This document shows positions 31,871 to 62,990 of a stretch of 64,000 nucleotides of DNA, piece by piece. Under the pieces are notes generated by a model. That model ran no database searches. It saw only the letters and a list, made by a program, of their open reading frames with translations, and was not told the DNA's origin. The position numbers and the translations under genes are program-made. Position 1 is the first letter of the stretch. Every line of letters starts with the position of its first letter. Location of the stretch: assembly GCA_026874595.1 (NCBI GenBank), contig CM049317.1, positions 55,276,118 through 55,340,117 on the forward strand, given 5' to 3'. This DNA comes from Sipunculus nudus (lineage: Eukaryota > Annelida > Sipuncula > Golfingiida > Sipunculidae).

Positions 31871-33337
31871 GCACTCTCCTGGCCACAATTTTGCCACAAT
31901 CACCTTGAAACTTACAGGGATGTTGAAAAACATAATTTCTAGGTGCCCTATTGTTTTTGGTTAAAATAGGTCAAAGGTCAAAGGTCAAGGTCACGACAGG
32001 TATGGTTAACGGTTTTTGCACTATAACTTCGCCATTAATAGGCTTATCCACTTCTGCAATAGCTCATTTTTTTCGTCATCACCTGGCCTTTCTTTTGACA
32101 TGTAGCTTACTTAAATTTGCTGTTACCATGGTTACGCAATTTTGGGGAGAAATCATGGAATTTCGTGATATTTTTCAAATTTGCAGCAATCGTACTGATT
32201 CTGAGATATTTTATGTAACACAAGAATATCTCGAAATTGTTTTTTCAGATTTTGGAAATGGCCGCCAGGGGGCGTTGCAGATGAAAAAACATGAACATTT
32301 GTTTTGGTGCTATACCTCCAGAACTATTAAACATTGGGCCATTTCCATCACAGCACCTTCAACTGGGGTCCATGGGCTTATTTTTGCGCATAGGTGCCAA
32401 AGTGCGCTATTGCCAGATTTCTCTACTTTTGGGGTAAAACTTTTGAATTTTGAAAATATGCAGTTTTCAGCTTCTAACTCTGTCAGTTTTTATGCTGGAG
32501 AGGTCAATTTTTTTGCATCTTGTAGCCCTTGGTGAGTTCTCGGTGATCCAATCAAAAATCTTGCAAAATCTCGCACCGTTTCTCGTCAAACGAGAGTCTT
32601 CGAGATTTCATTAAATATGACCTACAGGTTGCATTTTTTTAACAATGGCTTTGAAATTGATATATTTTGTGTTATTTTATAAATATCTCGAAATCAGTTT
32701 TTCATTTTTTTGGAAATAGCCACCAGGGGGCGTGGTACCTGAAACACTGTAACATATCATTTTTCTGCAATATCTCAAAAAATATTAAACGTGACACCAT
32801 TTTTTTGGTGGTATCTGAAACTAGGAACATTGGCTTATTCCTCCGCACATGTAGCTTTGTACTGCCGTTACCATGGTTACCAAATTTTGGGGTAAAACGT
32901 GACAACTTGAAAATACGAAGTTTACCTGCTTCTATCTCTGTAGATATTTGCCATAGAAAGGTCTGGTTTTCGGCGTTAGACAGCATCCGTCTAGTTCTTA
33001 GTCATTCAATCGCAAGTCTCGTCATATCTCGCACCGTTTCTCGTGAAACGAGAACACGTGACCATTCAAAGAAATGCCTATAATTCTGTCCTTTTTACGC
33101 CACAGACACATGGTCTGCAGCGCCGGATAGCGTCGGACACTCGCAGTCACATTCAGGGGTCGCATTGTAAGTCTCGTCAAATCTCGCGCCGTGTTTCACC
33201 AAACCACGAAGTCACGTGCCGTCGCCGCAAGTGCCGGCAGGGTCCCTACGGTGGGCGGCCGGCGTGTGCAGCGGTGCGTGACGGCCTTTCCGGGCCCTGT
33301 CTATTATCATACATGTTGGAGGCACAGTCACAACTTT
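31871..33337 (+). repeat. Megasatellite body, copy 1
   Basis: Begins gcactctcctggccacaatt. Contains a run of AGGTCA half-sites (31,968-31,993), a gttaccatggttac palindrome (32,122), a CTCF-like motif (32,259-32,277), a tctcgtcaaacgaga palindrome (about 32,582), a second CTCF-like motif (32,717-32,735), a second palindrome (32,867), and a GC-rich stretch (33,105-33,305). The next copy begins 1,823 bases later. Frames of 194 and 138 codons are open here, but differences between copies are amino-acid-changing, so no coding call is made. Confidence 0.92.
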
Positions 33338-33690
33338 ATTGCTTGCCGGAAATCTTCGATTTCGGCAAGCATATTGCTCAGTTGCGTATGTCTGTTTGTC
33401 TGTTTGTTGCTTGCCGGAAATCTTCGATTTCGGCAAGCATGTTGGTCAGTTGCGTATGTCTGTTTGTTGCTTGCCGGAAATCTTCGATTTCCGCAAGCAT
33501 GTTGGTCAGTTCCGTATGTCCATTTGTCTGTTTGTTTGTTGCTTGCCGGAAATCTTCGATTTCGGCAAGTTGGTTGGTCAGTTGCGTATGTCCATTTGTC
33601 TGTTTTTTTGTTGCTTGCCGGAAATCTTCGATTTCGGCAAGCATATTGCTCAGTTGCGTATGTCTGTTTGTCTGTTTGTTTGTTTGTTTG
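33338..33690 (+). repeat. Hairpin minisatellite, 5 units
   Basis: gcttgccgg units lie between 33,340 and 33,690, in the same form as at 31,441. One unit has a mismatched right arm (gatttccgcaagc). Confidence 0.9.
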
Positions 33691-33693
33691 TCT

Positions 33694-35158
33694 GCACTCT
33701 CCTGGCCACAATTTTGCCACAATCACCTTGAAACTTGCAGGGATGATGAAAAACATAATTTCTAGGTGCCCTATTGTTTTTGGTTAAAATAGGTCAAAGG
33801 TCAAAGGTCAAGGTCACGACAGGTATGGTTAACGGTTTTTGCACTATAACTTCGCCATAAATAGGCTTATCCACTTCTGCAATAGCTCATTTTTTTCGTC
33901 ATCACCTGGCCTTTCTTTTGACATGTAGCTAACTTAAATTTGCTGTTACCATGGTTACGCAATTTTGGGGAGAAATCATGGAATTTCGTGATATTTTTCA
34001 AATTTGCAGCAATCGTACTGATTCTGAGATATTTTATGTAACACAAGAATATCTCGAAATTGTTTTTTCAGATTTTGGAAATGGCCGCCGGGGGGCGTTG
34101 CAGATGAAAAAACATGAAAATTTGTTTTCGTGCTATACCTCCAGAACTATTAAACATTGGGCCATTTCCATCACAGCACCTTCAACTGGGTACCATGGGC
34201 TTATTTTTGCGCATAGGTGCCAAAGTGCGCTATTGCCAGATTTCTCTATTTTTGGGGTAAAACTTTTGAATTTTGAAAATATGCAGTTTTCAGCTTCTAA
34301 CTCTGTCAGTTTTTATGCTGGAGAGGTCATTTTTTTTGCATCTTGTAGCCCTTGGTGAGTTCTCGGTGGTCCAATCAAAAATCTTGCAAAATCTCGCACC
34401 GTTTCTCGTCAAACGAGAGTCTTCGAGATTTCATTAAATATGACCTACAGGTTGCATTTTTTTAACAATGGCTTTGAAATTGATATATTTTGTGTTATTT
34501 ATAAATATCTCGAAATCAGTTTTTCATTTTTTTGGAAATAGCCACCAGGGGGCGTGGTACCTGAAACACTGTAACATATCATTTTTCTGCAATATCTCAA
34601 AAAATATTAAACGTGACACCATTTTTTTTGTGGTATCTGAAACTAGGAACATTGGCTTATTCCTCCGCACATGTAGCTTTGTACTGCCGTTACCATGGTT
34701 ACCAAATTTTGGGGTAAAACGTGACAACTTGAAAATACGAAGTTTACCTGCTTCTATCTCTGTTGATATTTGCCATAGAAAGGTCTGGTTTTCGGCGTTA
34801 GACAGCATCCGTCTAGTTCTTAGTCATTCAATCGCAAGTCTCGTCATATCTCGCACCGTTTCTCGTGAAACGAGAACACGTGACCATTCAAAGAAATGCC
34901 TATAATTCTGTCATTTTTACGCCACAGACACATGGTCTGCAGCGCCGGATAGCGTCGGACACTCGCAGTCACATTCAGGGGTCGCATTGTAAGTCTCGTC
35001 AAATCTCGCGCCGTGTTTCACCAAACCACGAAGTCACGTGCCGTCGCCGCAAGTGCCGGCAGGGTCCCTACGGTGGGCGGCCGGCGTGTGCAGCGGTGCG
35101 TGACGGCCTTTCCAGGCCCTGTCTATTATCATACATGTTAGAGGCACAGTCACAACTT
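33694..35158 (+). repeat. Megasatellite body, copy 2
   Basis: Nearly identical to copy 1. CTCF-like motifs lie at 34,082-34,100 (one A-to-G change in the core) and 34,539-34,557. gttaccatggttac lies at 33,945 and 34,689. The GC-rich part is 34,925-35,125. In the 136-codon frame every difference from copy 1 that I compared changes an amino acid. Confidence 0.92.
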
Positions 35159-35375
35159 TATTGCTTGCCGGAAATCTTCGATTTCGGCAAGCATATTGCT
35201 CAGTTGCGTATGTCTGTTTGTCTGTTTGTTGCTTGCCGGAAATCTTTGATTTCGGCAAGTTGGTTGGTCAGTTGCGTATGTCCATTTGTCTGTTTGTTGC
35301 TTGCCGGAAATCTTCGATTTCGGCAAGCATGTTGGTCAGTTGCGTATGTCTGTTTGTCTGTCTGTCTGTTTGTTT
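35159..35375 (+). repeat. Hairpin minisatellite, 3 units
   Basis: gcttgccgg begins at about 35,162, 35,235 and 35,299, followed by the tgtctgtctg microsatellite. Confidence 0.9.
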
Positions 35376-36780
35376 GTCTGCACTCTCCTGGCCACAAATT
35401 TGCCACAATAACCTTGAAACTTACAGGGATGATGAAAAACATAATTTCTAGGTGCCCTATTGTTTTTCGTTAACATAGGTGAAAGGTCAAGGTCAAGGTC
35501 GTCAAATCTTCCCAAAACGGTTTTTTCTTCATATCTTTGTGACTATTAGCCGTATCTACTTCAACAACAGCTCATTTTAATCGTCATTCCAAGGCCTGTC
35601 ATCTGGTGTGTAGCTGACCCAAATTTGCCGTAACCATGGTTACAAATTTTAGGGGAAAAGTCATGATATTCGAATATAAGGGGTCTTATTTTTCTAACTT
35701 TGTCAGTTTTAAAGCTAGTGTGATCTAGTTTTTTGCATCAGGTAGCATTCAACTAGTACTACAGGATTTTATAACAAGTATTGCAGTATCTCGTTAAATA
35801 TCTCGTGAATAGAGATATTTCGAGATTTAATTCATCTTTCGCCAAAGGCCACATTATTGCAGGAATCTTTCTGAAACTGACATATTATAAGTCCTACACT
35901 AGTATCTCGAAATCGTTTTTTTCATTTTTTGAATAGGGCCGCTAGGGGGCGCTGGATGCGAACCTCCCGAACATATGATATTTTGGCCATATCTCCAAAA
36001 TTATAAGCCTCAATTACATAAACTATAGCTTATTTTCTTCCTCTGAGTTTTCTCCATAACCTAGTGTAGTCATCTGGTCACAATTTTGTGACACTTTGTC
36101 AGTGTGTCTGTCTGTTTGTCAGTTGTCCACAAATTCGCCTGCTTGCTCTTGCGTCTCACATATAGCATTCTAAAGGGCACAGTTTTGAAAGAATCCTTTT
36201 GAAACTATTACATCTTAAGTCTTACACTAATATCTCGAAACCAATTTTTCATTTTCCGGATATGGCCGCTAGGGGGCGCTGAACTCGAACCTCTCCCAAC
36301 ATATCATGCTTTGGCAATATTTTCAAAACTATAAACCTCAGTTACATAAACTGTAGCTTTTTTCTTCCTTTGAGTCTTCTCCATAACCTGGAGTAGTCAT
36401 CTGGACTCAATTTTGAGTCACTTTGTCAGTGTTTTCGTCTGTTTGTCAGTTGTCCTCAAATTCGCCTGCTTGTTGGCTCTTGCGTCTCACATATAGCATT
36501 CTGTAGGCCACAGTTTTGACGGAATCCTTTTGAAACTATTACATCTTATGTCTTACACTAATATCTAGAAATAAATATTTTCATTTTCCGGATATGGCCA
36601 CTAGTGGGCGCTGCACACGACCCTCACACACATACCATTGTATTGGCCATATCTCTACACCCAAAGCCTCAGTTACATAAACTATAGCTTATGTTCTTAC
36701 TCTGAGTCTTCTCCATAACCTGGTAAAGTCATCTGGTCTCGGTCTTGGGTCACTTTGTCAGTATGTCCATATAAACTTTA
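35376..36780 (+). repeat. Module B block 1 (~330-bp tandem repeat)
   Basis: Starts like a body, then changes to ~330-base units. Each unit holds gtcactttgtcagtgtgtc, cttgcgtctcacatatagca, ctaatatctcgaaa, a CTCF-like site and cataaactatagctta. CTCF-like sites lie at 35,937-35,955, 36,263-36,281 and 36,595-36,613 (spacing 326 and 332). gtaaccatggttac, a perfect palindrome, lies at 35,629-35,642. No coding potential. Confidence 0.9.
36263..36281 (+). promoter_or_regulatory. CTCF-like motif (module B example)
   Basis: tggccgctagggggcgctg, compared with the widely used vertebrate CTCF consensus TGGCCACCAGGGGGCGCTA, differs at three positions that are tolerant in known sites. Binding in this organism is not shown. 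Confidence 0.5.
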
Positions 36781-37185
36781 TAAACGGAGGGAAAACTGAA
36801 TGCACAGAGTCATGCAGGAATGCACGATGACACGCGTTTTAGTAAGACAAAGACACGTGTAGGTATGAGCGACAATCAGCGCAGTTTGCTCGTTTTGTGT
36901 AGGGTCCATCGGGCCAAATGTCAATTCAGACCCGCAGCCGACGGGATGAATTAATTGGCGTAGCCGGGGCCACGGCCATTTCCTTGTAAAAACTTGTGAA
37001 TAAATATACGGGACGGGCTGACCATTTTCTCAGGGCCATAGGAACGTCACCATTCCAGTGTGCCCTCAGACCTGGTCAGACCTAAAACGCATGCCTGCAC
37101 GTCTGTGCGCATGCAGGTGATTGCTGTCCAAAGTTTCAGTCGGTGTGTCCTTCAGGAAAGGACCCGAACCGTTTTTTTTTTTTTT
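36781..37185. other. Non-array insert inside the megasatellite
   Basis: About 400 bases match no array module. A CCTGCA/TGCAGG inverted pair lies at 37,094-37,117. The insert ends in a T run (about 37,171-37,187) abutting a diverged hairpin unit. It could be an inserted element or an old flank trapped by duplication. Confidence 0.55.
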
Positions 37186-37392
37186 TTCATTGCTTGCCAG
37201 ATATCTTCGATTTCTGCAGGCAGGTTCGCCAGTCGCAAATGTCTGTTTATTGCTTGCCGGAAATCTTCGATTTCGGCAAGCATGTTGGTCAGTTGCGTAT
37301 GTCTGTTTGTTGCTTGCCGGAAATCTTCGATTTCGGCAAGCATATTGCTCAGTTGCGTATGTCTGTTTGTCTGTTTGTCTGTTTGTTTGTCT
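37186..37392 (+). repeat. Hairpin minisatellite, 3 units, first diverged
   Basis: The first unit (gcttgccagatatcttcg..., about 37,191) is the most diverged in the window. Two standard units follow at about 37,254 and 37,312. Confidence 0.88.
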
Positions 37393-38853
37393 GCACTCTC
37401 CTGGCCACAATTTTGCCACAATCACCTTGAAACTTACAGGGATGTTGAAAAACATAATTTCTAGGTGCCCTATTGTTTTTGGTTAAAATAGGTCAAAGGT
37501 CAAGGTCACGACAGGTATGGTTAACGGTTTTTGCACTATAACTTCGCCATTGATAGGCTTATCCACTTCTGCAATAGCTCATTTTTTTCGTCATCACCTG
37601 GCCTTTCTTTTGACATGTAGCTTACTTAAATTTGCTGTTACCATGGTTACGCAATTTTGGGGAGAAATCATGGAATTTCGTGATATTTTTCAAATTTGCA
37701 GCAATCGTACTGATTCTGAGATATTTTATGTAACACAAGAATATCTCGAAATTGTTTTTTCAGATTTTGGAAATGGCCGCCAGGGGGCGTTGCAGATGAA
37801 AAAACATGAACATTTGTTTTGGTGCTATACCTCCAGAACTATTAAACATTGGGCCATTTCCATCACAGCACCTTCAACTGGGGTCCATGGGCTTATTTTT
37901 GCGCATAGGTGCCAAAGTGCGCTATTGCCAGATTTCTCTACTTTTGGGGTAAAACTTTTGAATTTTGAAAATATGCAGTTTTCAGCTTCTAACTCTGTCA
38001 GTTTTTATGCTGGAGAGGTCAATTTTTTTGCATCTTGTAGCCCTTGGTGAGTTCTCGGTGATCCAATCAAAAATCTTGCAAAATCTCGCACCGTTTCTCG
38101 TCAAACGAGAGTCTTCGAGATTTCATTAAATATGACCTACAGGTTGCATTTTTTTAACAATGGCTTTGAAATTGATATATTTTGTGTTATTTTATAAATA
38201 TCTCGAAATCAGTTTTTCATTTTTTTGGAAATAGCCACCAGGGGGCGTGGTACATGAAACACTGTAACATATCATTTTTCTGCAATATCTCAAAAAATAT
38301 TAAACGTGACACCATTTTTTTTGTGGTATCTGAAACTAGGAACATTGGCTTATTCCTCCGCACATGTAGCTTTGTACTGCCGTTACCATGGTTACCAAAT
38401 TTTGGGGTAAAACGTGACAACTTGAAAATACGAAGTTTACCTGCTTCTATCTCTGTAGATATTTGCCATAGAAAGGTCTGGTTTTCGGCGTTAGACAGCA
38501 TCCGTCTAGTTCTTAGTCATTCAATCGCAAGTCTCGTCATATCTTGCAACGTTTCTCGTGAAACGAGAACACGTGACCATTCAAAGAAATGCCTATAATT
38601 CTGTCATTTTTTACGCCACAGACACATGGTCTGCAGCGCCGGATAGCGTCGGACACTCCAGTCACATTCAGGGGTCGCATTGTAAGTCTCGTCAAATCTC
38701 GCGCCGTGTTTCACCAAACCACGAAGTCACGTGCCGTCGCCGCAAGTGCCGGCAGGGTCCCTACGGTGGGCGGCCGGCGTGTGCAGCGGTGCGTGACGGC
38801 CTTTCCGGGCCCTGTCTATTATCATACATGTTGGAGGCACAGTCACAACTTTA
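37393..38853 (+). repeat. Megasatellite body, copy 3
   Basis: CTCF-like motifs lie at 37,774-37,792 and 38,232-38,250. gttaccatggttac lies at 37,637 and 38,382. The GC-rich part is about 38,620-38,820. It is nearly identical to copies 1 and 2. Confidence 0.92.
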
Positions 38854-38955
38854 TTGCTTGCCGGAAATCTTCGATTTCGGCAAGCATATTGCTCAGTTGC
38901 GTATGTCTGTTTGTCTGTTTGTTGCTTGCCGGAAATCTTTGATTCCGGCAAGCAC
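38854..38955 (+). repeat. Hairpin units ending in a chimeric junction
   Basis: One full unit, then a second unit cut at gattccggcaagc and joined directly to acaattttgccacaatcacc. The microsatellite and about 20 bases of the next module are missing. This is a recombination or deletion junction at the hairpin. Confidence 0.85.
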
Positions 38956-39826
38956 AATTTTGCCACAATCACCTTGAAACTTTCAGAGATGATGGAGAAT
39001 TAAATTTCTAGGTGCCCTATTGTTTTTGGTCAAAATAGGTCAAAGGTCAAGGTCAAGGTCATCAAAACTTCTCAAAACGGTTTTTTCTTCATATCTTTGT
39101 GAATAATAGTCATATCTACTTCAACAATAGCTCATTTTAATCGTCATTCCAAGGCCTGTCATCTGCTGTGTAGCTGACTCAAATTTGCCGTAACCATGGT
39201 TACAAATTTTGGGGAAAAGTCATGATATTCGAAAATAAGGGGTCTTATTTTCCTAACTTTGTCAGTTTTAAAGCTAGAGTGATCAAGTTTTTTGCATCAG
39301 GTAGCATTCAACTAGTACTACAAGATTTTATTACAAGTCTTGCAGTATCTCGTAAAATATCTCGTGAATAGAGATATTTCGAGATTTCATTCATCTTGCG
39401 CCAAAGGCCAAATTATTGCAGGAATCATTTTGAAACTAACATATCATAAGTCCTACACTAGTATCTCAAAATCGTTTTTTCATTTTTTTAATATTACTGC
39501 TAGGGGGCGCTGCATACGACCCTCACACACATATCATTACATTGGCCATATCTCTAAAACCCAAAGCCTCAATCACATAAACTATAGCTTATTTTTTCCC
39601 TCTGAGTCTTCTCCATAAACTGATAATGTCATCTGGTCTCAATCTTGTGTCACTTTGTCAGTGTGTCCGTCTGTTTGTCAGTTGTCCTCAAATTTGGCTG
39701 CTTGCTGATTCTTGCGTCTCGCATATAGCATTCTACAGGCCACAGTTTTTAAAGAAGCATTTGAAAACTGATGCATATTATATTTTACAAAAATATCTCA
39801 CAATTTTTTTTTTCATTTTCCGGATA

Positions 39827-39845
39827 GGGCCGCTAGGTGGCGCTG
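39827..39845 (+). promoter_or_regulatory. CTCF-like motif (GGTGGC variant)
   Basis: gggccgctaggtggcgctg has the AGGTGGC core common in real vertebrate CTCF sites. Most neighbours have AGGGGGC. Confidence 0.5.
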
Positions 39846-40161
39846 CACCTGACCCTCACACACATATCATTATATTGACCATATCTCTAAAACCCAAAGC
39901 CTCAATTACAGAAACTATGGCTTATTTTCTTTCCCTGAGTCTTCTCCATGACCTAGTAATGTCATCTGGTCTAATTCTTGTATGACTTTGTCAGTGTGTC
40001 TGTCTGTTTGTCAGTTGTCCTCAAATCCGCCTACTTGCTGGTTCTTGCGTCTCATATATAGCATTCTACAGGCCACAGTTTTTTTTCAGGAATCCTTTTA
40101 AAACTGGTACATCTTATGTGTTTCACTAATATCTCAAAACAGATTTTTCATTTTCCGGATA

Positions 40162-40180
40162 TAGCCACTAGGGGGCGCTG
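40162..40180 (+). promoter_or_regulatory. CTCF-like motif (full core match)
   Basis: The core ccactagggggcgc matches every position of the degenerate consensus CCASYAGRKGGCRS. Function is inferred only. Confidence 0.5.
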
Positions 40181-40540
40181 CACCTTCACCTCCCCAACAT
40201 ATCATGTTTTGGCCATATCTCCAAAATTATAAACCTTATCTACATAAACCATCGCTAATTTTGCTCTTCTTTGCCTTCGGCACTTTTGTCTGGTAATCTG
40301 TTATCACAGATGTGTCAGTATGTTTGTCTGTTAGTCTTTTGTGGTCAGCTTTGTCTGCTTCCTCGTTGTTTTGTCTGATATGTCATTTTACAGGCCACAA
40401 CTTCTCAGCAAACGCTGAGGGTCATTCAAATAATAGAAACCCCACAATATGTTCTGTCTGTCCATCTGTCTGTCATTTCAACTTCCGGCAAGCGTTCGAC
40501 CTCTGGTCGTCTAGTTTTTTTGTTTTTTTGTGTGTTTGTC

Positions 40541-40745
40541 TGCGCTCTCCTGGCCATAATTCTGCAGCAATCGACATGACCCTTACAGGGTTGATTGACA
40601 ACCGAACACCCTGGAACCCTATTGTTTTTGGTCAACATTGCTCCAAGGTCAAGGGTCAAGGTCACGACAGGTGTGGTTAACGGTTTTTGCACTATAACTT
40701 CGCCATAAATAGGCTTATCCACTTCTGCAATAGCTCATTTTTTTC
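40541..40745 (+). repeat. Module C, partial
   Basis: Starts gcgctctcctggccataatt and includes acagggttgattgacaaccg and caaggtcaagggtcaaggtc. It is a diverged relative of the first 270 bases of the body. It joins module B after tcatcacctggcctgtcatc. Confidence 0.88.
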
Positions 40746-42477
40746 GTCATCACCTGGCCTGTCATCTGGTGTGTAGCTGACTCAAATTTGAAGTAACCAT
40801 GGTTACAAATTTTTGGGGAAAAGTCATGATATTCGAAAATAAGGGGTCTTATTTTTGTAACTTTGTCAGTTTTAAAGCTAGAGTGATCTAGTTTTTTGCA
40901 TCAGGAAGCATTCAACTAGTACTACAAGATTTTATTACAAGTCTTGCAGTATCTCGTAAAATATCTCGTGATTAGAGATATTTCGAGATTTAATTCATCT
41001 TGCGCCAAAGGCCACATTATTGCAGGAATCTTTTTGAAACTGACATATTATAAGTCCTATACTAGTATCTCGAAATTGTTTTTTCATTTTTTGAATAGGG
41101 CCGCTAGGGGGCGCTGGATGCGAACCTCCCGAACATATCATATTTTGGCCATATCTCAAAAATTATAAGCCTCAATTACATAAACTATAGCTTATTTTCT
41201 TCCTCTGAGTTTTCTCCATAACCTAGTGTAGTCATCTGGTCACAATTTTGTGACACTTTGTCAGTGTGTCTGTCTGTTTGTCAGTTGTCCTCAAATTCGC
41301 CTTCCTGCTCTTGCGTCTCACATATAGCATTCTACAGGCCACAGTTTTGAAAGAATCCTTTTGAAACTATTACATCTTAAGTCTTACACTAATATCTCGA
41401 AACCAATTTTTCATTTTCCGGATATGGCCGCTAGGGGGCGCTGAACTCGAACCTCTCCGAACATATCATGCTTTGGCAATATCTCCAAAACTATAAACCT
41501 CAGTTACATAAACTGTAGCTTTTTTCTTCCTTTGAGTCTTCTCCATAACCTGGATTAGTCATCTGGACTCAATCTTGAGTCACTTTGTCAGTGTTTTCGT
41601 CTGTTTGTCAGTTGTCCTCAAATTCGCCTGCTTAATTGTTGGCTCTTGCGTCTCACATGTAGCATTCTATAGGCCATAGTTTTGAGGGAATCTTTTTGAA
41701 ACTATTACATCTTATGTCTTACACTAATATCTAAAAATAAATTTTTCATTTTCCGGATATGGCCACTAGTGGGCGCTGCACACGACCCTCACACATACCA
41801 TTATATTGGCCATATCTCTACACCAAAAGCCTCTGTTATATAAACTATAGCTTATTTTCTTCCTTTGAATCTTCTCCATAACCTGATTAAGGCATCTGGT
41901 TTCAATCTTCTGTCACTTTGTCAGTGTGTCCATCTGTTTGACCGTTATCCTCAAAGTCGCCTGCTTGCTGGTTCTTACTCCTTACATATAGCATTCTACA
42001 GGCCACGGCTTTGACGGAATCCTTTTAAAACTGGGACATCTCATGTCATACACTAATAATACGAAACGCATTTGTCGTCTTCGGAATATGTCTCCTAGAG
42101 GGCGCTACAGTCGAGCCTCCCAAGTATATATATAATTCGCCATACCTCCAAAACTATAAATCTAAATTACATAAATTATAACTCATTTTCTTCCTTTGAA
42201 TCTTCTCAATCACTAGGTTATGTCATCTGGTGTCAATCTTGTCTCACAAAGTCACTATGTCCCTCTGTTCGTCTTTTGTTGTCAGTTTTGTCTGCTTGCC
42301 TGTTCTTTTGTCTCATATGTCATTCTACGGGCCACATATTCTCAGCAATGTCCCTGAGAGTCATTCCATTAATAGAAAACCGACAATATGTTCTTTCTGT
42401 CCGTCTGTGTTTCACTTCCGATTTCCGGCAAGCGTTCGACCTATGGTCGTCTAGTTTGTTTTTTTGTGTGTTTGTCT
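40746..42477 (+). repeat. Module B block 3
   Basis: CTCF-like motifs lie at 41,098-41,116, 41,425-41,443, 41,760-41,778 and 42,089-42,107 (spacing 327, 335, 329). gtaaccatggttac lies at 40,793-40,806. The block ends with half a hairpin and cgacctatggtcg (42,437-42,449). Confidence 0.9.
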
Positions 42478-42800
42478 GCGCTCTCCTGGCCACAATTTTG
42501 CAGCAATCGACATGACCCTTACAGGGTTGATTGACAACCGAACACCCTGGAACCCTATTGTTTTTGGTCAACATTGCTCCAAGGTCAAGGGTCAAGGTCA
42601 CGACAGGTGTGGTTAACGGTTTTTGCACTATAACTTCGCCATAAATAGGCTTATCCACTTCTGCAATAGCTCATTTTTTTCGTCATCACTTGTCCTTTCT
42701 TTTGATATGTAGCTTACTTAAATTTGCCGTTACTATGGTTACATTTTTTGGGCAAAAATCATGGAAATTGGAAATAACACGACCATTTTTTTGTAACTTT
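42478..42800 (+). repeat. Module C
   Basis: Full module C with AGGTCA-type half-sites near 42,582-42,600 and a one-base variant palindrome gttactatggttac (42,729-42,742). It leads into the 148-bp satellite. Confidence 0.88.
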
Positions 42801-47108: not shown

Positions 47109-47129
47109 AGCTAGTTTGTTTTTTGGATA

Positions 47130-50437: not shown

Positions 50438-50775
50438 TCTGCGCTCTCCTGGCCACAATTTTGCGGCAATCGACATGACCCTTACAGGGTTGATTGACAA
50501 CCGAACACCCTGGAACCCTATTGTTTTTGGTCAACATTGCTCCAAGGTCAAGGGTCAAGGTCACGACAGGTGTGGTTAACGGTTTTTGCACTATAACTTC
50601 GCCATAAATAGGCTTATCCACTTCTGCAATTGCTCATTTTTTTCGTCATCACCTGGCCTTTCTTTTGATATGTAGCTTACTTAAATTTGCCGTTACCATG
50701 GTTACATTTTTTGGGCAAAATTCATGGGAATTGGAAATAACACGACCATTTTTTTGTAACTTTGTCAGTTTTTTA
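50438..50775 (+). repeat. Module C
   Basis: Module C follows a hairpin unit directly here, with no module B. gttaccatggttac lies at 50,692-50,705. Confidence 0.88.
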
Positions 50776-52225: not shown

Positions 52226-52560
52226 TTGAACTTGGTCCCTTTTACACTAGAAAGATATTCAGCTGTTAAAGGTCAGCATGCATAAATAAACATATTATCC
52301 GTTTCTGCTGCCCCGACAATGTTGCTCATTCATATGACTGTTTCTACATGCACTCTGTCTATCTGTCTGTATCATTTCCATTTCCGGCAAGCGCGTGACC
52401 TCTGGTCATCTTGTTGCTTGCCGGAAATCTTCGATTTCGGCAAGTTGGTTGGTCAGTTGCGTATGTCCATTTGTTTGTTGCTTGCCGGAAATCTTCGATT
52501 TCCGCAAGCATATTGGTCAGTTGCGTATGTCTGTTTGTCTGTCTGTCTGTTTGTTTGTCT
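52226..52560 (+). repeat. Satellite tail and two hairpin units
   Basis: Tail, tgacctctggtca (52,396-52,408), then hairpin units at about 52,414 and 52,480. The second has the mismatched right arm seen at 45,061. Confidence 0.88.
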
Positions 52561-54028: not shown

Positions 54029-55480
54029 TATTGCTTGCCGGAAATCTTCGATTTCCGCAAGCATATTGGTCAGTTGCGTATGTCTGTTTGTCTGTCTGTC
54101 TGTTTGTTTGTTTGTCTGTATGTACACGCGCTACAGGCCACAGTTTTTAAGCAATCGCTCTGAAACTTATACATTAAATGTAAGATTGGTTCTCCTCGGA
54201 GCCTATTGTTTTTGGTCATGATCGGTCAAAGGTCAAGGTCAGGGTCACCAAAAAACCTAACATTTTTACTTTCTTCATATCTTTGTCAATAATAATCGTA
54301 GCCGCATAATCTGTAGCTCATTTTATTCCTCTTTATGTTAGCTTTCCAAGTGCTAGCAAATTTTTCTGGTCGATTGTTACCAACGTAACGTATTTTTGGG
54401 GGAAAATCAGAAAATTCGAAAATTTCACTCAAAATTTTCCATTTTTTAAGTTAGAGAGGTCTAGTTTTTTGCATTGTGTAGCATTTAATATGCTCTATGG
54501 AAAATTAACGGGAGTCTCGCAAAATCTCGTGCCATTTTTCGTCAAATGAGACTTTTCGAGATTTCATTAAAAACGATTTAGAGGTGGCAGTTTTACAGCT
54601 AAGGTTCTAAAAGTGACATATTTTCTGTTTTTCTGTATTATCTCGAACTTGTTTTTTCATTTTTTGAAATTAACCACCAGGGGGCGTGGTACTGGAAACA
54701 CTGCAACTTACCATTTTTCTGCAATACCAAAAAAAATATTAAACGTGGCACAATGTTTACTGTCTTATCTGAAACTAGGATCGTCGGCTTAATCCTGCGT
54801 ACATGTAGCTTTGCGCTGCTGTTACCATGGTAACCAAATTTTGGGGTAAAACTTGGCAATCTGAAAATAATAAGTTTTTTGCTTCTATCTCTGTTAATAT
54901 TTATACTACAAGTGTCTAGTTTTCTGCATGAGGTAGCATTCCCTTGCCACTAATGCAGTTAATTGCAAGTCTCGTAGAATCTCGCTCTGTTTTGCGTCAA
55001 ACAAGAAATCACGAGATTTCACAGAAATGCATATAACTTGGTCACCTTTTCGGCTAAAGAGGAGCAGTTTTCAGCATTTTGTTGCGTTTTGGGAGCTTAA
55101 CAAGATAATAACTTATATCTCGCCACATCTCGTACCATCTCCCGCCAAACGAGAATATTCGAGAATTCGAACAAATGTCTATATCTCTGTCATTTGAATG
55201 CCAGAGATTTTATTTTTCTATTGTTCAAGATTCACTTGACTAGTTTGAAGTGACAAAATTGAATATCTCGTCATATCTCGCATCATTTCTTGTCAAACGA
55301 GAACATGGGACCATTCAAAGATACGCCTATAATTCTGTTATTTTAATGCTGAAGACCTTTAGTTTTCAGCATTCGATAGCGTCTAACCCTCTCGGTCACA
55401 TTATGTGTTTATATTGTAAGTTTCGTCAAATCTGGGATCGTTTTTTCTTAAAAAAAAAAAAGTACATCCTATTGCCGTGA
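54029..55480 (+). repeat. Diverged terminal body copy
   Basis: After one hairpin unit, a body relative follows with the same module order but many differences. CTCF-like motif at 54,671-54,689. A perfect GTTACCATGGTAAC lies at 54,821-54,834. Decayed 148-bp-like units follow. It ends at a T/A run near 55,440-55,460, the right edge of array part 1. It is probably the oldest copy. Confidence 0.8.
54821..54834. promoter_or_regulatory. Perfect X-box palindrome
   Basis: GTTACCATGGTAAC is an exact RFX X-box form. Other copies in the array have one off-consensus base (gttaccatggttac). Function is inferred only. Confidence 0.45.
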
Positions 55481-55849
55481 CCATAAGTGGCGGCAGTATG
55501 TGATAGTAAATGTCGGCAGGGGCATTACACTTGACAGCTGGAGCCGTGTTCTATGGGTGTGCGATGGCCCATGAAGAAGACTTCTATTGTGTTGTTATCG
55601 TCTTCCTTTGATTGCTGCTTCGTAAGCTTCACAGACCAGCGCCAACCACCTGGTTGCCATGTGTCCTCAATGTAAACAAGCTTTGCTGTTTTCCTTTCCC
55701 TAAGATATGTATGGTAGCCTGTTCACTTGTCCTTAGATTGTTTATTGTTGGTGTATTGAAGTAAAATAAAATGCCAGGTTTTCCTGCATATTGATTGTAA
55801 ATTGAATAAAATCATACAAGAACCAACCAATGTTCTATGACCACTATTT
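55481..55849. other. Spacer between two tandem arrays
   Basis: Not similar to the array modules. No gene is recognised. Confidence 0.5.
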
Positions 55850-57690
55850 CAGATTTGAGATCAGAACAATTGCTTTCTGCATAAACCACTATGACCAGAT
55901 TTGATAAACTTTAAAGTGGTCTATATTTTTTTCTGAAGAAGTTGAGCTATATGCTTGGAGATGCCAGCCAGTGGGTGTGAATGGATTGCAATGAAACCCA
56001 AGCCAGGTGTTTGTGAAGAGTCTGGTGGAGATGAAGGGGGCCAAAACCTATTTGACTGTGTATAAGCATAAACTGGCCTGAAATCAGGTTTCTGGGGGCA
56101 TGAAATTTTTGTTTGTGGGAACAGGGTAATATTTTCTTGTTTCCCTGTATATACACCCTAAACTGGGCCTAATGACACCAAAACCAGGTTTGTGGGACCA
56201 TCAGTACAGATTTGAGGGGGAAAAATGGATTTTATCCGTATATCACTATGTTCACTGTGTCCAGATTTGGAAATTCAAACTGGTCCTAATTTTTTTTCTG
56301 ATGGAGTTGAGCCAAATGCTTTGAGATACCAGCCAGTGGGTGTAAATGGATTGCAATGATACCAAACCAGGTGTGTGTGTTGAGTTTTGTGGAGATGAGG
56401 GGGGCCAAAACCTATCTGACTGTGTATAAGCATAAACTGGCCTGAAATCAGGTTTCTGGGGGCTTGAAATTCTTGTTTGTGTCAACAGGGTAATATTATC
56501 TTGTTTCCCTGTATATACACCTTGAATATGGCCTAATGACACCTAAACCATGTTTTAGGGACCATCATTACAGATTTGAGGTAAAAAAAAATGGATTTTC
56601 CCTGTATATCACTATGTTCACTGTGTCCAGATTTGGGAATTCAAACTGGCCCTAATTTTTTTTCTGAGGGAGTTGAGCCAAATGCTTGGTGATGCCAGCC
56701 AGTGGGTGTAAATGGATTGCAATGATACCCAAACCAGGAGTGTGTGTTGAGTTTTGTGGATATGAAGGGGGCCAGAACCTATTTGACTGTGTATAAGCAT
56801 AAACTGGCCTGAAATCAGGTTTCTGGGGGCATGAAATTTTTGTTTGTGGGAACAGGGTACTATTATCTTGTTTCCCTGTATATACACCCTAAACTGGGCC
56901 TAATGACACCAAAACCAGGTTTGTGGGACCATCAGTACAGATTTGAGGTGGGAAAATGGATTTTCTCTGTATATCACTATGTTCACTGTGTCCAGATTTG
57001 GAAATTCAAACTGGCCCTAATTTTTTTTCTGAGGGAGTTGAGCCAAATGCTTGGTGATGCCAGCCAGTGGGTGTAAATGGATTGCAATGATACCCAAACC
57101 AGGAGTGTGTGTTGAGTTTTGTGGGGATGAGGGGGGCCAGAACCTATTTGACTGTGTATAAGCATAAACTGGCCTGAAATCAGGTTTCTGGGGGCATGAA
57201 ATTTTTGTTTGTGGGAACAGGGTAGTATTATCTTGTTTCCCTGTATATACACACTAAACTGGGCCTAATGACACCAAAACCAGGTTTGTGGGACCATCAG
57301 TACAGATTTGAGGGGAAAAAATGGATTTTTTCTGTATATCACTATGTCCACTGTGTCCAGATTTGGAAATTCAAACTGGCCCTAATTTTTTTTCTGAGGG
57401 ATTTGAACCAAATGCTTTGAGATTCCAGCCAGTGGGTGTAAATGGATTGCAATGATAGCCAAACCAGGTGTGTGTGATGAGTCTGGTGGAGATGAGGTGG
57501 TCCAAAACACTATTTGCCTGTGTATAATAAGCCATATACTGTCCTCAGCTGAAATCAGCTTTCTGGGGGCTTGAAATGTTTGCTGGTGGGAACAAGGTAA
57601 TATTATCTTGTTATCATGGATATACACCCTAAAATGGGTCTAAGAACACCAACTACATGCATGTTGGACCATGAGTACAGATTTGAGGTA
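55850..57690. repeat. 365-bp tandem repeat, 5 copies
   Basis: ccagccagtgggtgt recurs at about 55,964, 56,329, 56,695, 57,060 and 57,425 (spacing 365-366). Inside the unit, shorter related pieces recur (caaactggccctaat, aaactggcctgaaatcagg, aaactgggcctaatgacacc), so the unit itself looks like a higher-order repeat. Minus-strand frames of 69-96 codons repeat once per unit, without a recognised domain. 365 is not a multiple of three. Confidence 0.93.
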
Positions 57691-59880
57691 ACAAATTGTC
57701 TGTCTATAAATTAAAAAAAATCAAATATCAAACTGTTATAAACATGTATCAATATATTTAATAAAATCTCTTTTCATCCAATGAATTGCATCTTATGTTT
57801 TTATAAATAAACCATGATATTCAATTACATCCAGTAATAAAAAATAAAAATAAAATGAATAAAAGTTTTTTTGTTTTTGTTTTTTTTTTTGGGGGGGGGG
57901 GTGTTTGTGTTTTTTTTGCAGTAAAATCCAGGCTTCTCTTTGGATCCCGGCGGTGGGCGAGGGTACAATGGACACCACACAACATTTGAAAGAACATTTT
58001 TTTCTGCTGTTATTGGATGACCAAGTCTCTATGAATTTAAAAAAAATATTTATTCCGTTATTCAAGATGACAGTGAAAATGACCCTATTTTTTCAATCAT
58101 TCACCACTCTTTTCGAGCGTTCATCAAAAAAGAAAGAGCCCGTCCCACCGCATTTCCTGCGAGAGTTCGTTTCTTCAGAGTCCAAACAATCCTACAGGGG
58201 CGGGGTTTAGTCCATCTCGTCTTAAATTTGTGTCCGGGGCACGGCAAACATTATGAAAGCGGACAAAAACTTTCATACGGCTGGTAAATGCGTTTATATG
58301 TAAACGCGGGGAATTCCCGGACAATTCACGGAGAGATTTTATATGCAATGATACTTTTAATTACACGTTAAAATCATTTAAAATCTACCACTATATTACT
58401 CTAAAGACATTTATTCACTGTTAAATTACCGAAATAATAACCAGCGCAAACAATGTGGGACTGCCACTAACACCAATCTGGATCACCAGCTAACATTGAC
58501 TACCGATCTTACATCAGACGAAAACGCTAAACACTATATATTTTTTCAACAGTTTACTGTGCAAACCGTAACAAAACCATGCAGGATATCAAATTTACAA
58601 GTTCTTAAGGAAATATGATACAAAACATAAATTGTACCTTTGCTCACATTTAATAACATCATCATGATGAATTCTCCGCGAATTCTCCAGCTGTCCGCGT
58701 TATAGATGTATATGTATTTATTAAAGACAAAAATTGACATACAATTTTATGGATACCCGTATAATTGCGGTTTTCTGGACCGTCCCAGCCCACAGGTAGG
58801 ATAATATGGATTCCCGACAATATTCTAATGACCGTTCCCTGAGCTGGAACGGGCTAAGAAGGTCCCTGTCATTTTTTTTAATTGTCAATTCCCAGGTTTT
58901 TCGGATAAAAAAATGGCCCAATCCTTCATTCAATTTCCAGCCTCTGCTGGCGTTCCGGGTTTAAAAAAGAGCCCGTCCCATGCCTATTTCAGCTAGGACT
59001 GCAAACTCTGGGGTCAAAACAACTCAACTACGGCTTGGGATTACTACCTTTCCTCTTAAATTTCCATCGCGCCCGTGTCAAGTGTACCGTTTTATTCACA
59101 AACGTGCGGCAGGCGCCAAAAAATTTGACAGCACCCCTCTCTCATGCCAGAATATATTTTTATATATGAAGTCCTAACCCACCACGGAACTAGGGCCTCA
59201 AATTTTTTTATCTTATTACTTACCACTTCAGACTCCTTAAAAGTCTCTCCTTTTTTAACCAAAGATTCCAATTTTTAAAATATATTAAATTTCACATTAC
59301 ACGAAGGGGACATTACAGTTAATCCGTGATGGGCAGGACTTCTTGGAATTTTATAATTCCCGGACGCAGGCTGACCGACTGCCTTTTTTCTTCAAGGACA
59401 GCCCTAATTTAAGCCATCATCAGACTTGAAGATGTCCTCAGGCCGACCTATTTGTCCAGGAATGAAAGGTCACGTCTCCCTTACCCAGAGGTCGGGTCTC
59501 TGTCTAACACGAACGCGGCTTCGCTTGCATTTCGGCATTCTGGACGTTCAACTCTTCAAGTTCTTTTTCAGTGCTTTTCTTATTTCCAGCACTCAAGAAT
59601 AGGAGAACTGCCAAGGATTCAGTTGGACTTCCATTATTTTTATTTCTGTCCAAAAATGGATTATCCTGTATAGGATGGCTACTAATAATAACACTATTAA
59701 TGTCTCTCTATCCGTCTCTCTGTCTGTCTCTCTGTCTACTCCTCTTTGACTTTTGAAAATCAGCAAGACCTTATTCATATGTGCTACTGTTTTCCCCATG
59801 ATAGAGGTTTTTCATCTGATCAGATCCAAATGTTTCCTGTCTGTCTGCCTAGTAACTGTCCATCAATTTCGCTGTCTTAT
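57691..59880. other. Unassigned sequence between array parts
   Basis: aaagagcccgtccca occurs at about 58,133 and 58,966, suggesting an element end or duplication. T and G runs lie at about 57,880-57,901. Frames of 101 (57,905), 65 (58,980) and 73 (59,452) codons have no recognised domain. Confidence 0.4.
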
Positions 59881-60290
59881 TTCCGGTAACTTCCGACAAG
59901 CGTTCGACCTCAGGTCGTCTAGTTTGTTTTTTTGTTTGTTTTTTTGTGTGTTTGTCTGCGCTCTCCTGGCCACAATTTTGCAGCAATCGACATGACCCTT
60001 ACAGGGTTGATTGACAACCGAACACCCTGGAACCCTATTGTTTTTGGTCAACATTGCTCCAAGGTCAAGGGTCAAGGTCACGACAGGTGTGGTTAACGGT
60101 TTTTGCACTATAACTTCGCCATAAAAAGGCTTATCCACTTTTGCAATAGCTCATTTTTTTCGTCATCACCTGGCCTTTCTTTTGATATGTAGCTTACTTA
60201 AATTTGCCGTTACCATGGTTACATTTTTTGGGCAAAAATCATGGAAATTGGAAATAACACGACCATTTTTTTGTAACTTTGTCAGTTTTT
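59881..60290 (+). repeat. Module C, start of array part 2
   Basis: Begins abruptly with a damaged half hairpin (ttccgacaagcg) and cgacctcaggtcg (59,905-59,917), then module C with gttaccatggttac at 60,209-60,222. Confidence 0.88.
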
Positions 60291-61560
60291 AAGCTAGGCA
60301 GAACTAGTTTTCGGCATTTTGTTCCACATGACCAGCTTGACACGACAGAACTGAAAGTCACGCCAAATCTCGCGCCATATCTCGTCAAACGAGAAAAAAC
60401 GAGACTTCGCGGAAATGCTTATAACTCGGCGACTTTTACAGCTAGACAGGTCTGGTTTTCGGCATTTCGTTCCACCAAACAAGCTTGACACGACAGAGCT
60501 GCAAGACAGGCCAAATCTCGCACCGTATCTCGTCAAACGAGAAAACACGGGATGTCACGGAAATGCTTATAACTGGGCCAGTTTTACAGCTAGACACGTC
60601 TGGTTTTCGGCAATTAGTTCCACTAGACCAGCTTGACACGACAGATATGCAAGTCTGGCAAAATCTCGCACCGTATCTCGTCAAACGAGAAAACACGAAA
60701 TTTCACGGAAATGCTTATAACTGGGCCAGTTTTACAGCTAGACACGTCTGGTTTCCGGCATTTCCTTCCACATGACCAGCTTGACACGATAGATGTGCAA
60801 GTCAGGCCAAATCTCGCACCCTATCTCGTCAAACGAGAAAACACGAGATTTCACGGAAATGCTTATAACTCGGCGAGTTTTACAGCTAGACAGGTCTAGT
60901 TTTCGGCATTTTCTTTCACATGACCTGCTGGACATGACAGAACTGAAAGTCAGGCCGAATGTCGCACCGTATCTCGTCAAACGAGAAAACATGAGATTTC
61001 ACGGCATTGGTTATAACTCGGCGAGTTTTACAGATAGACACGTCTGGTTTTCGGCATTTTGTTCCACTAGACCAGCTTGACATGACAGACATGCATGTCA
61101 GGCAAAATCTCGCACCGTATCCCGTCAAACGAGAAAACACGAGATTTCACGGAACTGCAGCTAGACAGGTCTAGTTTTCGGCATTTAGTTCCACATGACC
61201 CGCTTGGCATGACAGAACTCCAAGTCAGGCACAATCTCGCACCGTATCTCGTCAAACGAGAAAACACGAGATTTCACCAAAATGCTTTTAACTCGGCGAT
61301 TTTTACAGGTACGAAGGTCTAGTTTTCGGCATTGTGTCACATATGAACTGCTTGATTAGATAAAGCCATAAGTCTGCCCAAATCTCGCACCATATCTTGT
61401 GCAACGTGAACAAACGAGATGTCACTGAAATGCTTATAACTCGGCGCCTTTTACAACAAAGTAGTTCTAGTTTTCGGCATTTTGTCACATATGACCAGCT
61501 TGACATGACAAACCTGAAAACGTCTCACTGCTTCTTGTCAAACGAGATTAACGGGATTTC
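60291..61560 (+). repeat. 148-bp palindromic satellite, block 5
   Basis: About nine units. One unit (around 61,150) carries an internal deletion that shortens it. Outer units are more diverged than in block 3. Confidence 0.92.
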
Positions 61561-61851
61561 ATGAAAATTGAAGTTGGTCCCTTTTACACTAGAAAGATAT
61601 GCAGCTGTTAAAGGTCAGCATGCATAAATAAACATATTATCCGTTTCTGCTGCCCCCACAATGTTGCTCATTCATATGACTGTTTCTACATGCACTCTCT
61701 TTCTATCTGTCTGTATCATTTAAATTTCCGGCAAGCGCGTGACCTCTGGTCATCTTGTTTTTTTGTTTATTGCTTGCCGGAATCAAAGATTTCGGCAAGC
61801 ATATTGCTCAGTTGCGTATGTCTGTTTGTCTGTTTGTCTGTTTATTTGTCT
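61561..61851 (+). repeat. Satellite tail and hairpin (aaa-loop type)
   Basis: Tail, tgacctctggtca (61,740-61,752), then one hairpin unit with the gaatcaaagatttc form at about 61,772. Confidence 0.88.
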
Positions 61852-62990
61852 GCACTCTCCTGGCCACAATTTTGCCACAATCACCTTGAAACTTACAGCG
61901 ATGATGAAAAACATAATTTCTAGGTGCCCTATTGTTTTTGGTTAAAATAGGTCAAAGGTCAAGGTCAAGGTCACGACAGGTATGGTTAACGGTTTTTGCA
62001 CTATAACTTCGCCATAAATAGTTTTATCCACTTCTGCAATAGCTCATTTTTTTCGTCATCACCTGGCCTTTCTTTTGACATGTAGCTTACTTAAATTTGC
62101 TGTTACCATGGTTACGCAATTTTGGGGAGAAATCATGGAATTTCCTGATATTTTTCAAATTTGCAGCAATCGTACTGATTCTGAGATATTTTATGTAACA
62201 CAAGAATATCTCGAAATTGTTTTTTCAGATTTTGGAAATGGCCGCCAGGGGGCGTTGCAGATGAAAAAACATGAACATTTGTTTTGGTGCTATACCTCCA
62301 GAACTATTAAACATTGGGCCATTTCCATCACAGCACCTTCAACTGGGGTCCATGGGCTTATTTTTGCGCATAGGTGCCAAAGTGCGCTATTGCCAGATTT
62401 CTCTATTTTTGGGGTAAAACTTTTGAATTTTGAAAATATGCAGTTTTCAGCTTCTAACTCTGTCAGTTTTTATGCTGGAGGGTTCAATTTTTTTGCATCT
62501 TGTAGCCCTTGGTGAGCTCTCGGTGATCTAATCAAAAATCTTGCAAAATCTCGCACCGTTTCTCGTCAAACGAGAGTCTTCGAGATTTCATTAAATATGA
62601 CCTACAGGTTGCATTTTTTTAACAATGGCTTTGAAATTGATATATTTTGTGTTATTTATAAATATCTCGAAATCAGATTTTCATTTTTTGGAAATAGCCA
62701 CCAGGGGGCGTGGTACCTGAAACACTGTAACATATCATTTTTCTGCAATATCTAAAATAATTTTAAACATGGCACAATTTTTATCGTTGTATCTTAAACT
62801 AGGAACATTGGCTTATTCCTCCGCACATGTAGCTTTGTGCTGCCGTTACCATGGTTACCAAATTTGTGGGTTAAACTTGACGATCTGAAAATATGCAGTT
62901 TTTGGCTTCTATCTCGGTTAATATTTATGTTTCAAGGGTCTAGTTTTTTTGCATAAGGCTGCTTCCCCTTGGTTCTAAGTCATTCAATTG
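61852..62990 (+). repeat. Megasatellite body, copy 6 (5' two thirds)
   Basis: Parallel to copy 4 with the same 3' boundary. CTCF-like motifs lie at 62,239-62,257 and 62,695-62,713. gttaccatggttac lies at 62,102 and 62,845. Confidence 0.9.

What the first reader, a model, noticed from the sequence alone, without database searches (positions are those of the whole stretch)
32259..62713. About 28 CTCF-like motifs, all in one orientation, at fixed places in the repeat
Each body has two and each module B unit has one copy of tggccgc(c/t)agggggcg(c/t)tg or close variants. Starts: 32259, 32717, 34082, 34539, 35937, 36263, 36595, 37774, 38232, 39494, 39827, 40162, 41098, 41425, 41760, 42089, 43482, 45529, 45986, 47130, 47457, 47788, 48119, 52949, 53406, 54671, 62239, 62695. 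They match the vertebrate consensus TGGCCACCAGGGGGCGCTA closely, with variants at tolerated positions. CTCF zinc fingers are conserved across Bilateria, and motif orientation matters for loop anchoring. Rodent B2 SINEs are a known case of repeats that spread CTCF sites. Inference: this array could be a dense one-directional insulator or loop-anchor block.
Basis: partly seen in the sequence, partly recalled or inferred. Interest (0 to 1): 0.85.

Follow-up and report, generated by a model that had tools for sequence, protein, structure and literature searches.

The report
CTCF sites carried by rolling-circle transposon
A jumping-gene family in an animal genome, probably an invertebrate's, carries thousands of copies of the DNA word read by the genome-folding protein CTCF, stacked in same-direction arrays, so it may have seeded many folding boundaries, although binding itself has not been measured.

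Summary
All 28 motifs are present (one start off by one base), on the + strand; 23 of 28 exceed 20 bits with a CTCF matrix, while 1000 column-permuted matrices gave at most 4 such sites. They are not independent: they sit in three related unit classes. The host genome (1.43 Gb) holds 2,649 and 3,091 exact copies of two of the words, and 15,544 matches to a CTCF core pattern against 150 for the reversed control. It encodes an 11-finger CTCF; fingers 3-5 keep all 12 base-contact residues of human CTCF, the other eight fingers 13 of 32. The carrier has inverted repeats, central tandem repeats and a 3' hairpin plus CTAG and T, where 9 of 14 visible right edges fall: a Helitron of the Helentron/HINE kind. 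An X-box-like word in the same units is conserved even more strongly. One-directionality follows from direct repetition; 41 of 42 sampled clusters on contig C1 are same-strand. CTCF occupancy and loop anchoring are inferred. New variant of a known kind: transposon- or satellite-spread CTCF sites.

The parts
31437..64000 (+). array of related modules (start, b1, b2, lead-B, module B, 148-bp satellite, 66-bp hairpin repeats); 82% painted by ten probes; satellite block reaches 63971, close to the window end; left edge about 31434
32259..32277 (+). CTCF-like motif, class b1, 22.8 bits
32717..32735 (+). CTCF-like motif, class b2, 21.9 bits
34082..34100 (+). CTCF-like motif, class b1, 18.7 bits
34539..34557 (+). 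CTCF-like motif, class b2, 21.9 bits
35936..35954 (+). CTCF-like motif, module B, 24.1 bits (reader gave 35937)
36263..36281 (+). CTCF-like motif, module B, 26.0 bits
36595..36613 (+). CTCF-like motif, module B, 22.3 bits
37774..37792 (+). CTCF-like motif, class b1, 22.8 bits
38232..38250 (+). CTCF-like motif, class b2, 21.9 bits
39494..39512 (+). CTCF-like motif, module B, decayed, 13.8 bits
39827..39845 (+). CTCF-like motif, module B, 22.9 bits
40162..40180 (+). CTCF-like motif, module B, 26.9 bits
41098..41116 (+). CTCF-like motif, module B, 24.1 bits
41425..41443 (+). CTCF-like motif, module B, 26.0 bits
41760..41778 (+). CTCF-like motif, module B, 22.3 bits
42089..42107 (+). CTCF-like motif, module B, decayed, 10.8 bits
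43482..43500 (+). CTCF-like motif, class b2, 21.9 bits
45529..45547 (+). CTCF-like motif, class b1, 18.6 bits
45986..46004 (+). CTCF-like motif, class b2, 21.9 bits
47130..47148 (+). CTCF-like motif, module B, 26.9 bits
47457..47475 (+). CTCF-like motif, module B, 26.0 bits
47788..47806 (+). CTCF-like motif, module B, decayed, 10.4 bits
48119..48137 (+). CTCF-like motif, module B, 22.1 bits
52949..52967 (+). CTCF-like motif, class b1, 22.8 bits
53406..53424 (+). CTCF-like motif, class b2, 21.9 bits
54671..54689 (+). CTCF-like motif, diverged b2, 20.5 bits
62239..62257 (+). CTCF-like motif, class b1, 22.8 bits
62695..62713 (+). CTCF-like motif, class b2, 21.9 bits
32122..62858 (.). 21 X-box-like words GT(T/A)AC(C/T)ATGG(T/A)(T/A)AC at 32122, 32867, 33945, 34689, 35630, 37637, 38382, 39190, 40793, 42729, 43632, 45392, 46136, 48759, 50692, 52812, 53557, 54821, 60209, 62102, 62845; 137 bp before each of 6 b1 motifs, 150-151 bp after each of 8 b2 motifs, 304-306 bp before three lead module-B motifs
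31443..31856 (+). left-end block: repeats of a hairpin-forming word such as GCTTGCCGGAAATCTTCGATTTCGGCAAGC
40497..40514 (+). 3' end word: hairpin CGACC-N3-GGTCG then TCTAG, followed by T
42437..42454 (+). 3' end word, as above
48467..48484 (+). 3' end word, as above
59905..59922 (+). 3' end word, as above
43805..44810 (+). 148-bp satellite block without CTCF motif above 10 bits (others include 46309-47113, 48868-50077, 50801-52159, 60318-61505, 63019-63971)
55434..59890 (.). stretch not painted by the array probes (365-bp tandem inside), CpG o/e 0.45 against 0.92-1.03 in the array

Best explanation
The motifs are genuine CTCF-consensus words borne at fixed places by a non-autonomous Helitron of the Helentron/HINE kind whose internal tandem units have multiplied into same-strand arrays at many places in the host genome. 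SHOWN by sequence: specific match to the CTCF matrix, abundance in the genome, an 11-finger host CTCF with fingers 3-5 kept, carrier ends like those of HINEs. INFERRED: host CTCF binds many of the intact copies (the array's CpG content suggests little germline methylation), and because the strong sites in an array face one way, a bound array would halt cohesin from mainly one side and act as a one-directional barrier or anchor, in the manner of DXZ4. The orientation itself is a by-product of head-to-tail repetition.
For: Matrix controls. Host genome: exact words 2,649 and 3,091 copies with 0 reversed controls; CTCF core pattern 15,544 against 150. Outside clusters: in the first 100 listed core matches (7.65 Mb of contig C1) 12 are isolated, 1.57/Mb against a genome-wide control rate of 0.105/Mb; 17 of 20 fetched sparse loci show no BLAST similarity to the window's array and 19 of the 20 hold a site above 15 bits, so the animal seems to use this motif apart from the repeat. 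Host CTCF: 54% identity over residues 1-226 of the 231-residue query, 246.8 bits against 147.2 for the next locus; 11 fingers; contact residues of fingers 3-5 12 of 12 as in human. Units located by their flanks only: 166 of 190 score above 15 bits. Conservation: 148 distinct B units, motif columns 0.911 against flanks 0.826, motif CpG columns 0.894 (4 columns) against flank CpG columns 0.652 (14 columns). Motif changes on a tree cost less CTCF score than random changes (-1.96 against -3.25 bits, p 0.019). Carrier: 9 of 14 visible right edges fall 1-24 bases after hairpin+CTAG (one with CTAT), 1,749 genome copies of the 3' word with 0 controls.
Against: No occupancy, methylation or contact data. 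The motif is not uniquely conserved: between classes (12 of the 28 units used) a T-rich block just upstream scores as high (0.750 against 0.752) and among the nine B units of that windows beat it; in the 148 B units a block at +79 is better conserved. Changes per position do not correlate significantly with matrix information (p 0.12; p 0.20). The first motif CpG (positions 5-6) is kept in only 0.80/0.84 of units. Fingers 6 and 7, which also read the core (recalled), keep only 1 and 2 of 4 contact residues; over all 11 fingers 25 of 44 are kept. In echinoderms CTCF motif orientation has no pattern at boundaries (PMC13317027). Flank identities to the distant relatives L048/L049 are inflated by free end gaps, so that comparison is weak (flank 0.69, motif 0.76, core 0.84). 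The array loci were chosen because they hold an exact word or core match, which favours intact copies, and the best of 17 offsets was scored.
Confidence: 0.6

Rival explanations
1. Passenger word: the CTCF-like word was part of one ancestral unit and was copied with it; it is not bound to any effect, and its apparent conservation reflects recent copying and gene conversion among units.
For: All 28 sites fall in three related unit classes. Other blocks of the unit are conserved as well or better.
Against: Classes with 42-59% flank identity keep 53-89% motif identity; the diverged relatives L048/L049 hold seven sites above 20 bits; motif CpGs survive better than flank CpGs; CTCF-type sites unrelated to the array are enriched in the stretch sampled.
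Confidence: 0.2
2. Element-serving sites (compatible with binding): the CTCF-like and X-box-like words serve the transposon itself, for example by keeping copies open and unmethylated in the germ line or by driving its transcription, and any effect on host folding is incidental.
For: The X-box-like word is the best conserved window of 221 (0.94 against mean 0.55; 12 of 21 words used); AGGTCAAAGGTCA and TCAAGGTCA words sit in the same units; array CpG o/e 0.92-1.03 against 0.45 in the stretch between.
Against: Factor names rest on recalled consensus sequences; no expression data; module-B units carry the CTCF word without the X-box.
Confidence: 0.35
3. Another zinc-finger protein reads the word, for example an SP/KLF-type protein (the b2 word contains GGGGGCGTGG; consensus recalled) or one of the host's many poly-finger proteins acting against mobile DNA.
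For: 192 finger-like matches in the host at E up to 1e-10, a lower bound, many of the listed ones on C16, C7 and C11.
Against: The 5' half (GGCCRC) also fits CTCF: left-half p 0.00003-0.0031 in 13 of the 15 distinct words.
Confidence: 0.12
4. CTCF sink: thousands of repeat sites titrate CTCF away from unique sites without forming boundaries.
For: Of the first 100 listed core matches, 88 lie in clusters.
Against: No measurement; needs occupancy first.
Confidence: 0.1

Closest known systems
HINE (non-autonomous Helentron) with satellite-like central repeats, oyster Cg_HINE and Drosophila DINE-1 (PMC7492417, passages read)
   Same: Inverted repeats in both end modules, short palindrome at the 3' end, central tandem repeats, T-rich insertion side, dispersal in the genome.
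   Different: Here the internal units carry CTCF-consensus and X-box-like words; the array in the window spans about 32 kb. The term CTCF does not occur in that paper's main text.
DXZ4/Dxz4 macrosatellite (PMC3491370 and PMC4539712, passages read)
   Same: Tandem array with CTCF sites in its units; sequence conservation concentrated at the CTCF word.
   Different: DXZ4 is a single X-linked locus with measured CTCF binding; here the arrays are dispersed, transposon-borne and untested.
Rodent B2 SINE as carrier of CTCF sites (recalled, no paper read)
   Same: A mobile repeat spreads CTCF sites.
   Different: A dispersed retroposon, against a Helitron with many sites per array facing one way.
ISX Helitron of Drosophila miranda that spread dosage-compensation sites (recalled, no paper read)
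   Same: A Helitron that spread binding sites of a chromatin complex.
   Different: Other complex, other animal, sex-chromosome role.

Membership tests
CTCF binding site | High match to the CTCF matrix, beyond composition | tested here: met
   matrix recalled
CTCF binding site | Host encodes CTCF with core-reading fingers kept | tested here: met
   11 fingers; fingers 3-5 12 of 12 contacts, but finger 6 1 of 4 and finger 7 2 of 4
CTCF binding site | Occupancy in vivo | not testable with these tools
   no ChIP or CUT&RUN data
HINE / non-autonomous Helentron | Subterminal inverted repeats in left and right modules | tested here: met
   GCTTGCCGG at 4 of 9 visible left edges (window, L019, L030, L031) and just outside a fifth (L029); TTCCGGCAAGC before most 3' ends
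HINE / non-autonomous Helentron | Short palindrome at the 3' end | tested here: met
   CGACC-N3-GGTCG and covarying TGACC-N3-GGTCA before TCTAG; 51 copies in L007-L034, L007-L014 partly overlapping the others; 9 of 14 visible right edges fall 1-24 bases behind it
HINE / non-autonomous Helentron | Central tandem repeats | tested here: met
HINE / non-autonomous Helentron | No target duplication, oligo-T insertion side | tested here: inconclusive
   T follows the end in the 9 right edges; empty sites not examined
HINE / non-autonomous Helentron | Autonomous partner with Rep/helicase and the same ends | tested here: inconclusive
DXZ4-type CTCF macrosatellite | Tandem units with CTCF word in one orientation | tested here: met
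DXZ4-type CTCF macrosatellite | CTCF-dependent long-range contacts | not testable with these tools
   no Hi-C
RFX X-box | Fits GTHNYYATRRNAAC (recalled consensus) | tested here: met
   18 of 21 words fit; the three lead-B words do not

The most novel reading that the evidence does not exclude
A rolling-circle transposon has rewired the folding of an animal genome: thousands of HINE-borne CTCF sites, stacked in same-strand arrays with an X-box-like partner word, are bound by CTCF and work as dispersed, one-directional barriers to loop extrusion, a transposon-built counterpart of DXZ4 outside vertebrates.
Probability: 0.22. Interest if true: 0.85.

Novelty: new variant of a known kind. Interest (0 to 1): 0.62.

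Why it matters
Whether CTCF orientation governs loops outside vertebrates is open (PMC13317027, passages). A genome with thousands of CTCF words, stacked in same-facing arrays on both strands, and an 11-finger CTCF is a natural test: if arrays stall extrusion from one side, Hi-C around them should be asymmetric according to strand. It would also add Helitrons to the mobile elements that spread CTCF sites.

Tried and rejected
Rejected: chance GC-rich word; absence of CTCF from the host. No support found for coding function (no Pfam family reached its curated cut-off in 10 left-half frames; no PDB match for one frame), for a known RNA family or tRNA genes. One search used a wrong gap range (0 matches); the corrected X-box-to-motif search did not complete. 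A genome search with a whole module-B unit did not complete either. One search crashed and was redone.
Full report
1. Observation. With the CTCF matrix MA0139.1 (recalled) they score 10.4 to 26.9 of a possible 30.3 bits; 25 of 28 exceed 18 bits and 23 exceed 20. They are the only + strand matches above 10 bits in 31-64 kb; 13 minus-strand matches of 10.5-13.3 bits exist there, 12 of them one repeated word at the unit start. Random sequences (30 of order 1, 30 of order 3) reached single scores of 19.2 and 21.3 and averaged 0.67 and 1.37 sites above 13 bits. Of 1000 matrices with permuted columns none gave more than 4 sites above 20 bits (top score 23.5), against 23. Each of the 15 distinct 19-mers beats its own letter permutations (p at most 8e-5), and none of 5000 dinucleotide shuffles of one b1, one b2 and one B unit reaches the unit's score. 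The left 31 kb has no site above 14 bits.

2. Independence. The sites belong to three unit classes (6 b1, 8 b2, 14 B, my count) that align with each other around the motif: flank identity between classes is 42-59%, motif identity 53-89%. The classes look like old relatives, so the 28 copies probably trace to one ancestral word. In an alignment of 12 of the 28 units the motif window (0.752) is beaten by 3 of 461 windows, but a T-rich block just upstream nearly equals it (0.750), and among the nine B units 31 windows beat it. On a tree of flanks the motif shows 27 changes, 1.42 per column against 2.15 in flanks; the changes cost 1.96 bits each against 3.25 expected at random (p 0.019), while their number per position does not correlate significantly with matrix information (p 0.12). 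With a chosen ancestor the distinct variants kept more score than random mutants (Fisher 71.8 on 28 df, not independent).

3. The host genome. The window lies in a 1.43-Gb assembly (153 contigs) at C12:55276118-55340117. The B word GGCCGCTAGGGGGCGCTG occurs 1393+1256 times, the b2 word TAGCCACCAGGGGGCGTGG 1426+1665 times, reversed controls 0. The core pattern CCRSYAGRKGGCRS has 15,544 matches against 150 for its reverse; the reverse holds a fixed CpG, so the ratio is somewhat flattered. Of the first 100 listed places of that pattern (all on C1, up to 7.65 Mb), 88 lie in 17 clusters, none of mixed strand, and 12 are isolated, that is 1.57/Mb against a genome-wide control rate of 0.105/Mb; 17 of 20 fetched sparse loci (some of them pairs) have no BLAST similarity to the window's array, and 19 of 20 hold a site above 15 bits. 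The animal therefore seems to use vertebrate-type CTCF sites apart from the repeat; this rests on one stretch of one contig.

4. Arrays elsewhere. In all 20 array loci fetched from C1 the sites above 15 bits lie on one strand only. Over 200 listed places of the two exact words on C1, 41 of 42 clusters (gap 5 kb), 33 of 35 (15 kb) and 29 of 32 (30 kb) are single-stranded; plus and minus clusters both occur. Units found by their flanks alone keep the motif: of 234 groups, 193 had both flanks and 190 could be read; 166 of 190 score above 15 bits, the best of 17 offsets being taken and 27 of them lying in the window; leaving out units with the exact B word, 112 of 136. In 148 distinct B units the motif columns agree with the majority in 0.911 of units against 0.826 in flanks, 9 of 317 windows being better; CpG columns inside the motif 0.894 (4 columns) against 0.652 in flanks (14 columns). 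The CpG at positions 15-16 is kept at 0.99/0.95, the one at 5-6 only at 0.80/0.84. Loci were chosen for an exact word or core match, which favours intact copies. L048/L049 are a distant subfamily (BLAST identity 66-77% in the aligned pieces) that holds seven sites above 20 bits and, by eye in the printed L049, an X-box word; the separate flank comparison is unreliable because of free end gaps.

5. Host CTCF. A stretch of vertebrate CTCF checked against the PDB finds one outstanding locus, C11:67037824-67038510, at 54% identity and 246.8 bits, the next having 147.2. The open frame (L055 70-2475) encodes 11 fingers, and its best PDB match is human CTCF 7w1m. At positions -1, 2, 3 and 6 (recalled convention) fingers 3, 4 and 5 are identical to human (12 of 12); finger 6 keeps 1 and finger 7 keeps 2 of 4; over all 11 fingers 25 of 44. 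PMC13317027 reports loss of one finger in hemichordates and two in echinoderms (passages read), so an 11-finger host is probably neither. CTCF is described as bilaterian-specific in PMC7535936 (passages read). That the host is an invertebrate is inferred from the modest identity to vertebrate CTCF; the species was not identified.

6. The carrier. Arrays tend to end on the right at a hairpin, CGACC-N3-GGTCG or its covarying form TGACC-N3-GGTCA, followed by TCTAG and then T. Of 14 loci with a visible right edge, 9 (L015, L022, L023, L025, L026, L028, L030, L031, L033; hairpin bases changed in L030, CTAT instead of CTAG in L031) have it 1-24 bases behind this end, and the sequence beyond differs from locus to locus; in L018, L019, L024, L027 and L029 the edge lies elsewhere. 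Of 9 visible left edges 4 (window, L019, L030, L031) fall at GCTTGCCGG and a fifth (L029) just inside it; the inverted word TTCCGGCAAGC stands before most 3' hairpins. The 3' word has 1,749 exact matches, control 0. These are features given for HINEs in PMC7492417 (passages read). The genome has 143 Helitron_like_N matches (none in the 14 control genomes), some in frames of more than 2,200 residues; whether these share the ends was not examined.

7. A second word. Twenty-one X-box-like words occur in the same array (for the form found 20 times 0.025 were expected), 137 bp before each b1 motif and 150-151 bp after each b2 motif. In an alignment of 12 of them the word is the best conserved of 221 windows (0.94 against mean 0.55), more strongly than the CTCF word. 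Nuclear-receptor-type words AGGTCAAAGGTCA and TCAAGGTCA recur in the units. The factor names are recalled.

8. Mechanism. Shown: specific word, abundance, host protein, carrier. Inferred: binding of intact copies (about 0.6); an effect on extrusion or insulation (about 0.25). CpG o/e of 0.92-1.03 in the array against 0.45 in the stretch between suggests low germline methylation, which favours CTCF binding (recalled). One-directionality comes from head-to-tail repetition.

9. Verdict. A new variant of a known kind: transposon-spread CTCF sites, on a HINE with DXZ4-like array geometry. The literature searches did not ask for Helitron with CTCF, so novelty in print is not claimed.

Noticed in passing
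window 31968-61968: Nuclear-receptor-type words (AGGTCAAAGGTCA; TCAAGGTCA) recur in the units, and on the other strand in the 289-bp tandem at 1-1379.
   Followed up: partly
window 55434-59890: A 4.5-kb stretch with a 365-bp tandem interrupts the array and is CpG-depleted (o/e 0.45) while the array is not.
   Followed up: no
L048, L049: Distant subfamily with CTCF words 144-148 bp apart in pairs; L049 has a roughly 410-bp tandem unit with two words each.
   Followed up: partly
G000 C16, C7, C11: Many C2H2 zinc-finger frames close together in the listing (192 matches, a lower bound), a possible expanded family of poly-finger proteins.
   Followed up: no
G000 C60-C89, C123: Nine COX1-like frames of 577-578 aa on small contigs and one of 489 aa on C123 without standard stops look bacterial or otherwise non-animal, so the assembly may hold symbionts or contaminants.
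   Followed up: no
G000:C1 about 64.2-66.5 Mb: The 3' end word is dense here, on the minus strand up to 65.77 Mb and on the plus strand from 65.97 Mb (capped listing), which suggests a large region with an orientation switch.
   Followed up: no
window 19794-20457: The consensus of a 275-bp tandem contains GGAGTCGAACC, a tRNA B-box-like word on the other strand (B-box consensus recalled).
   Followed up: no
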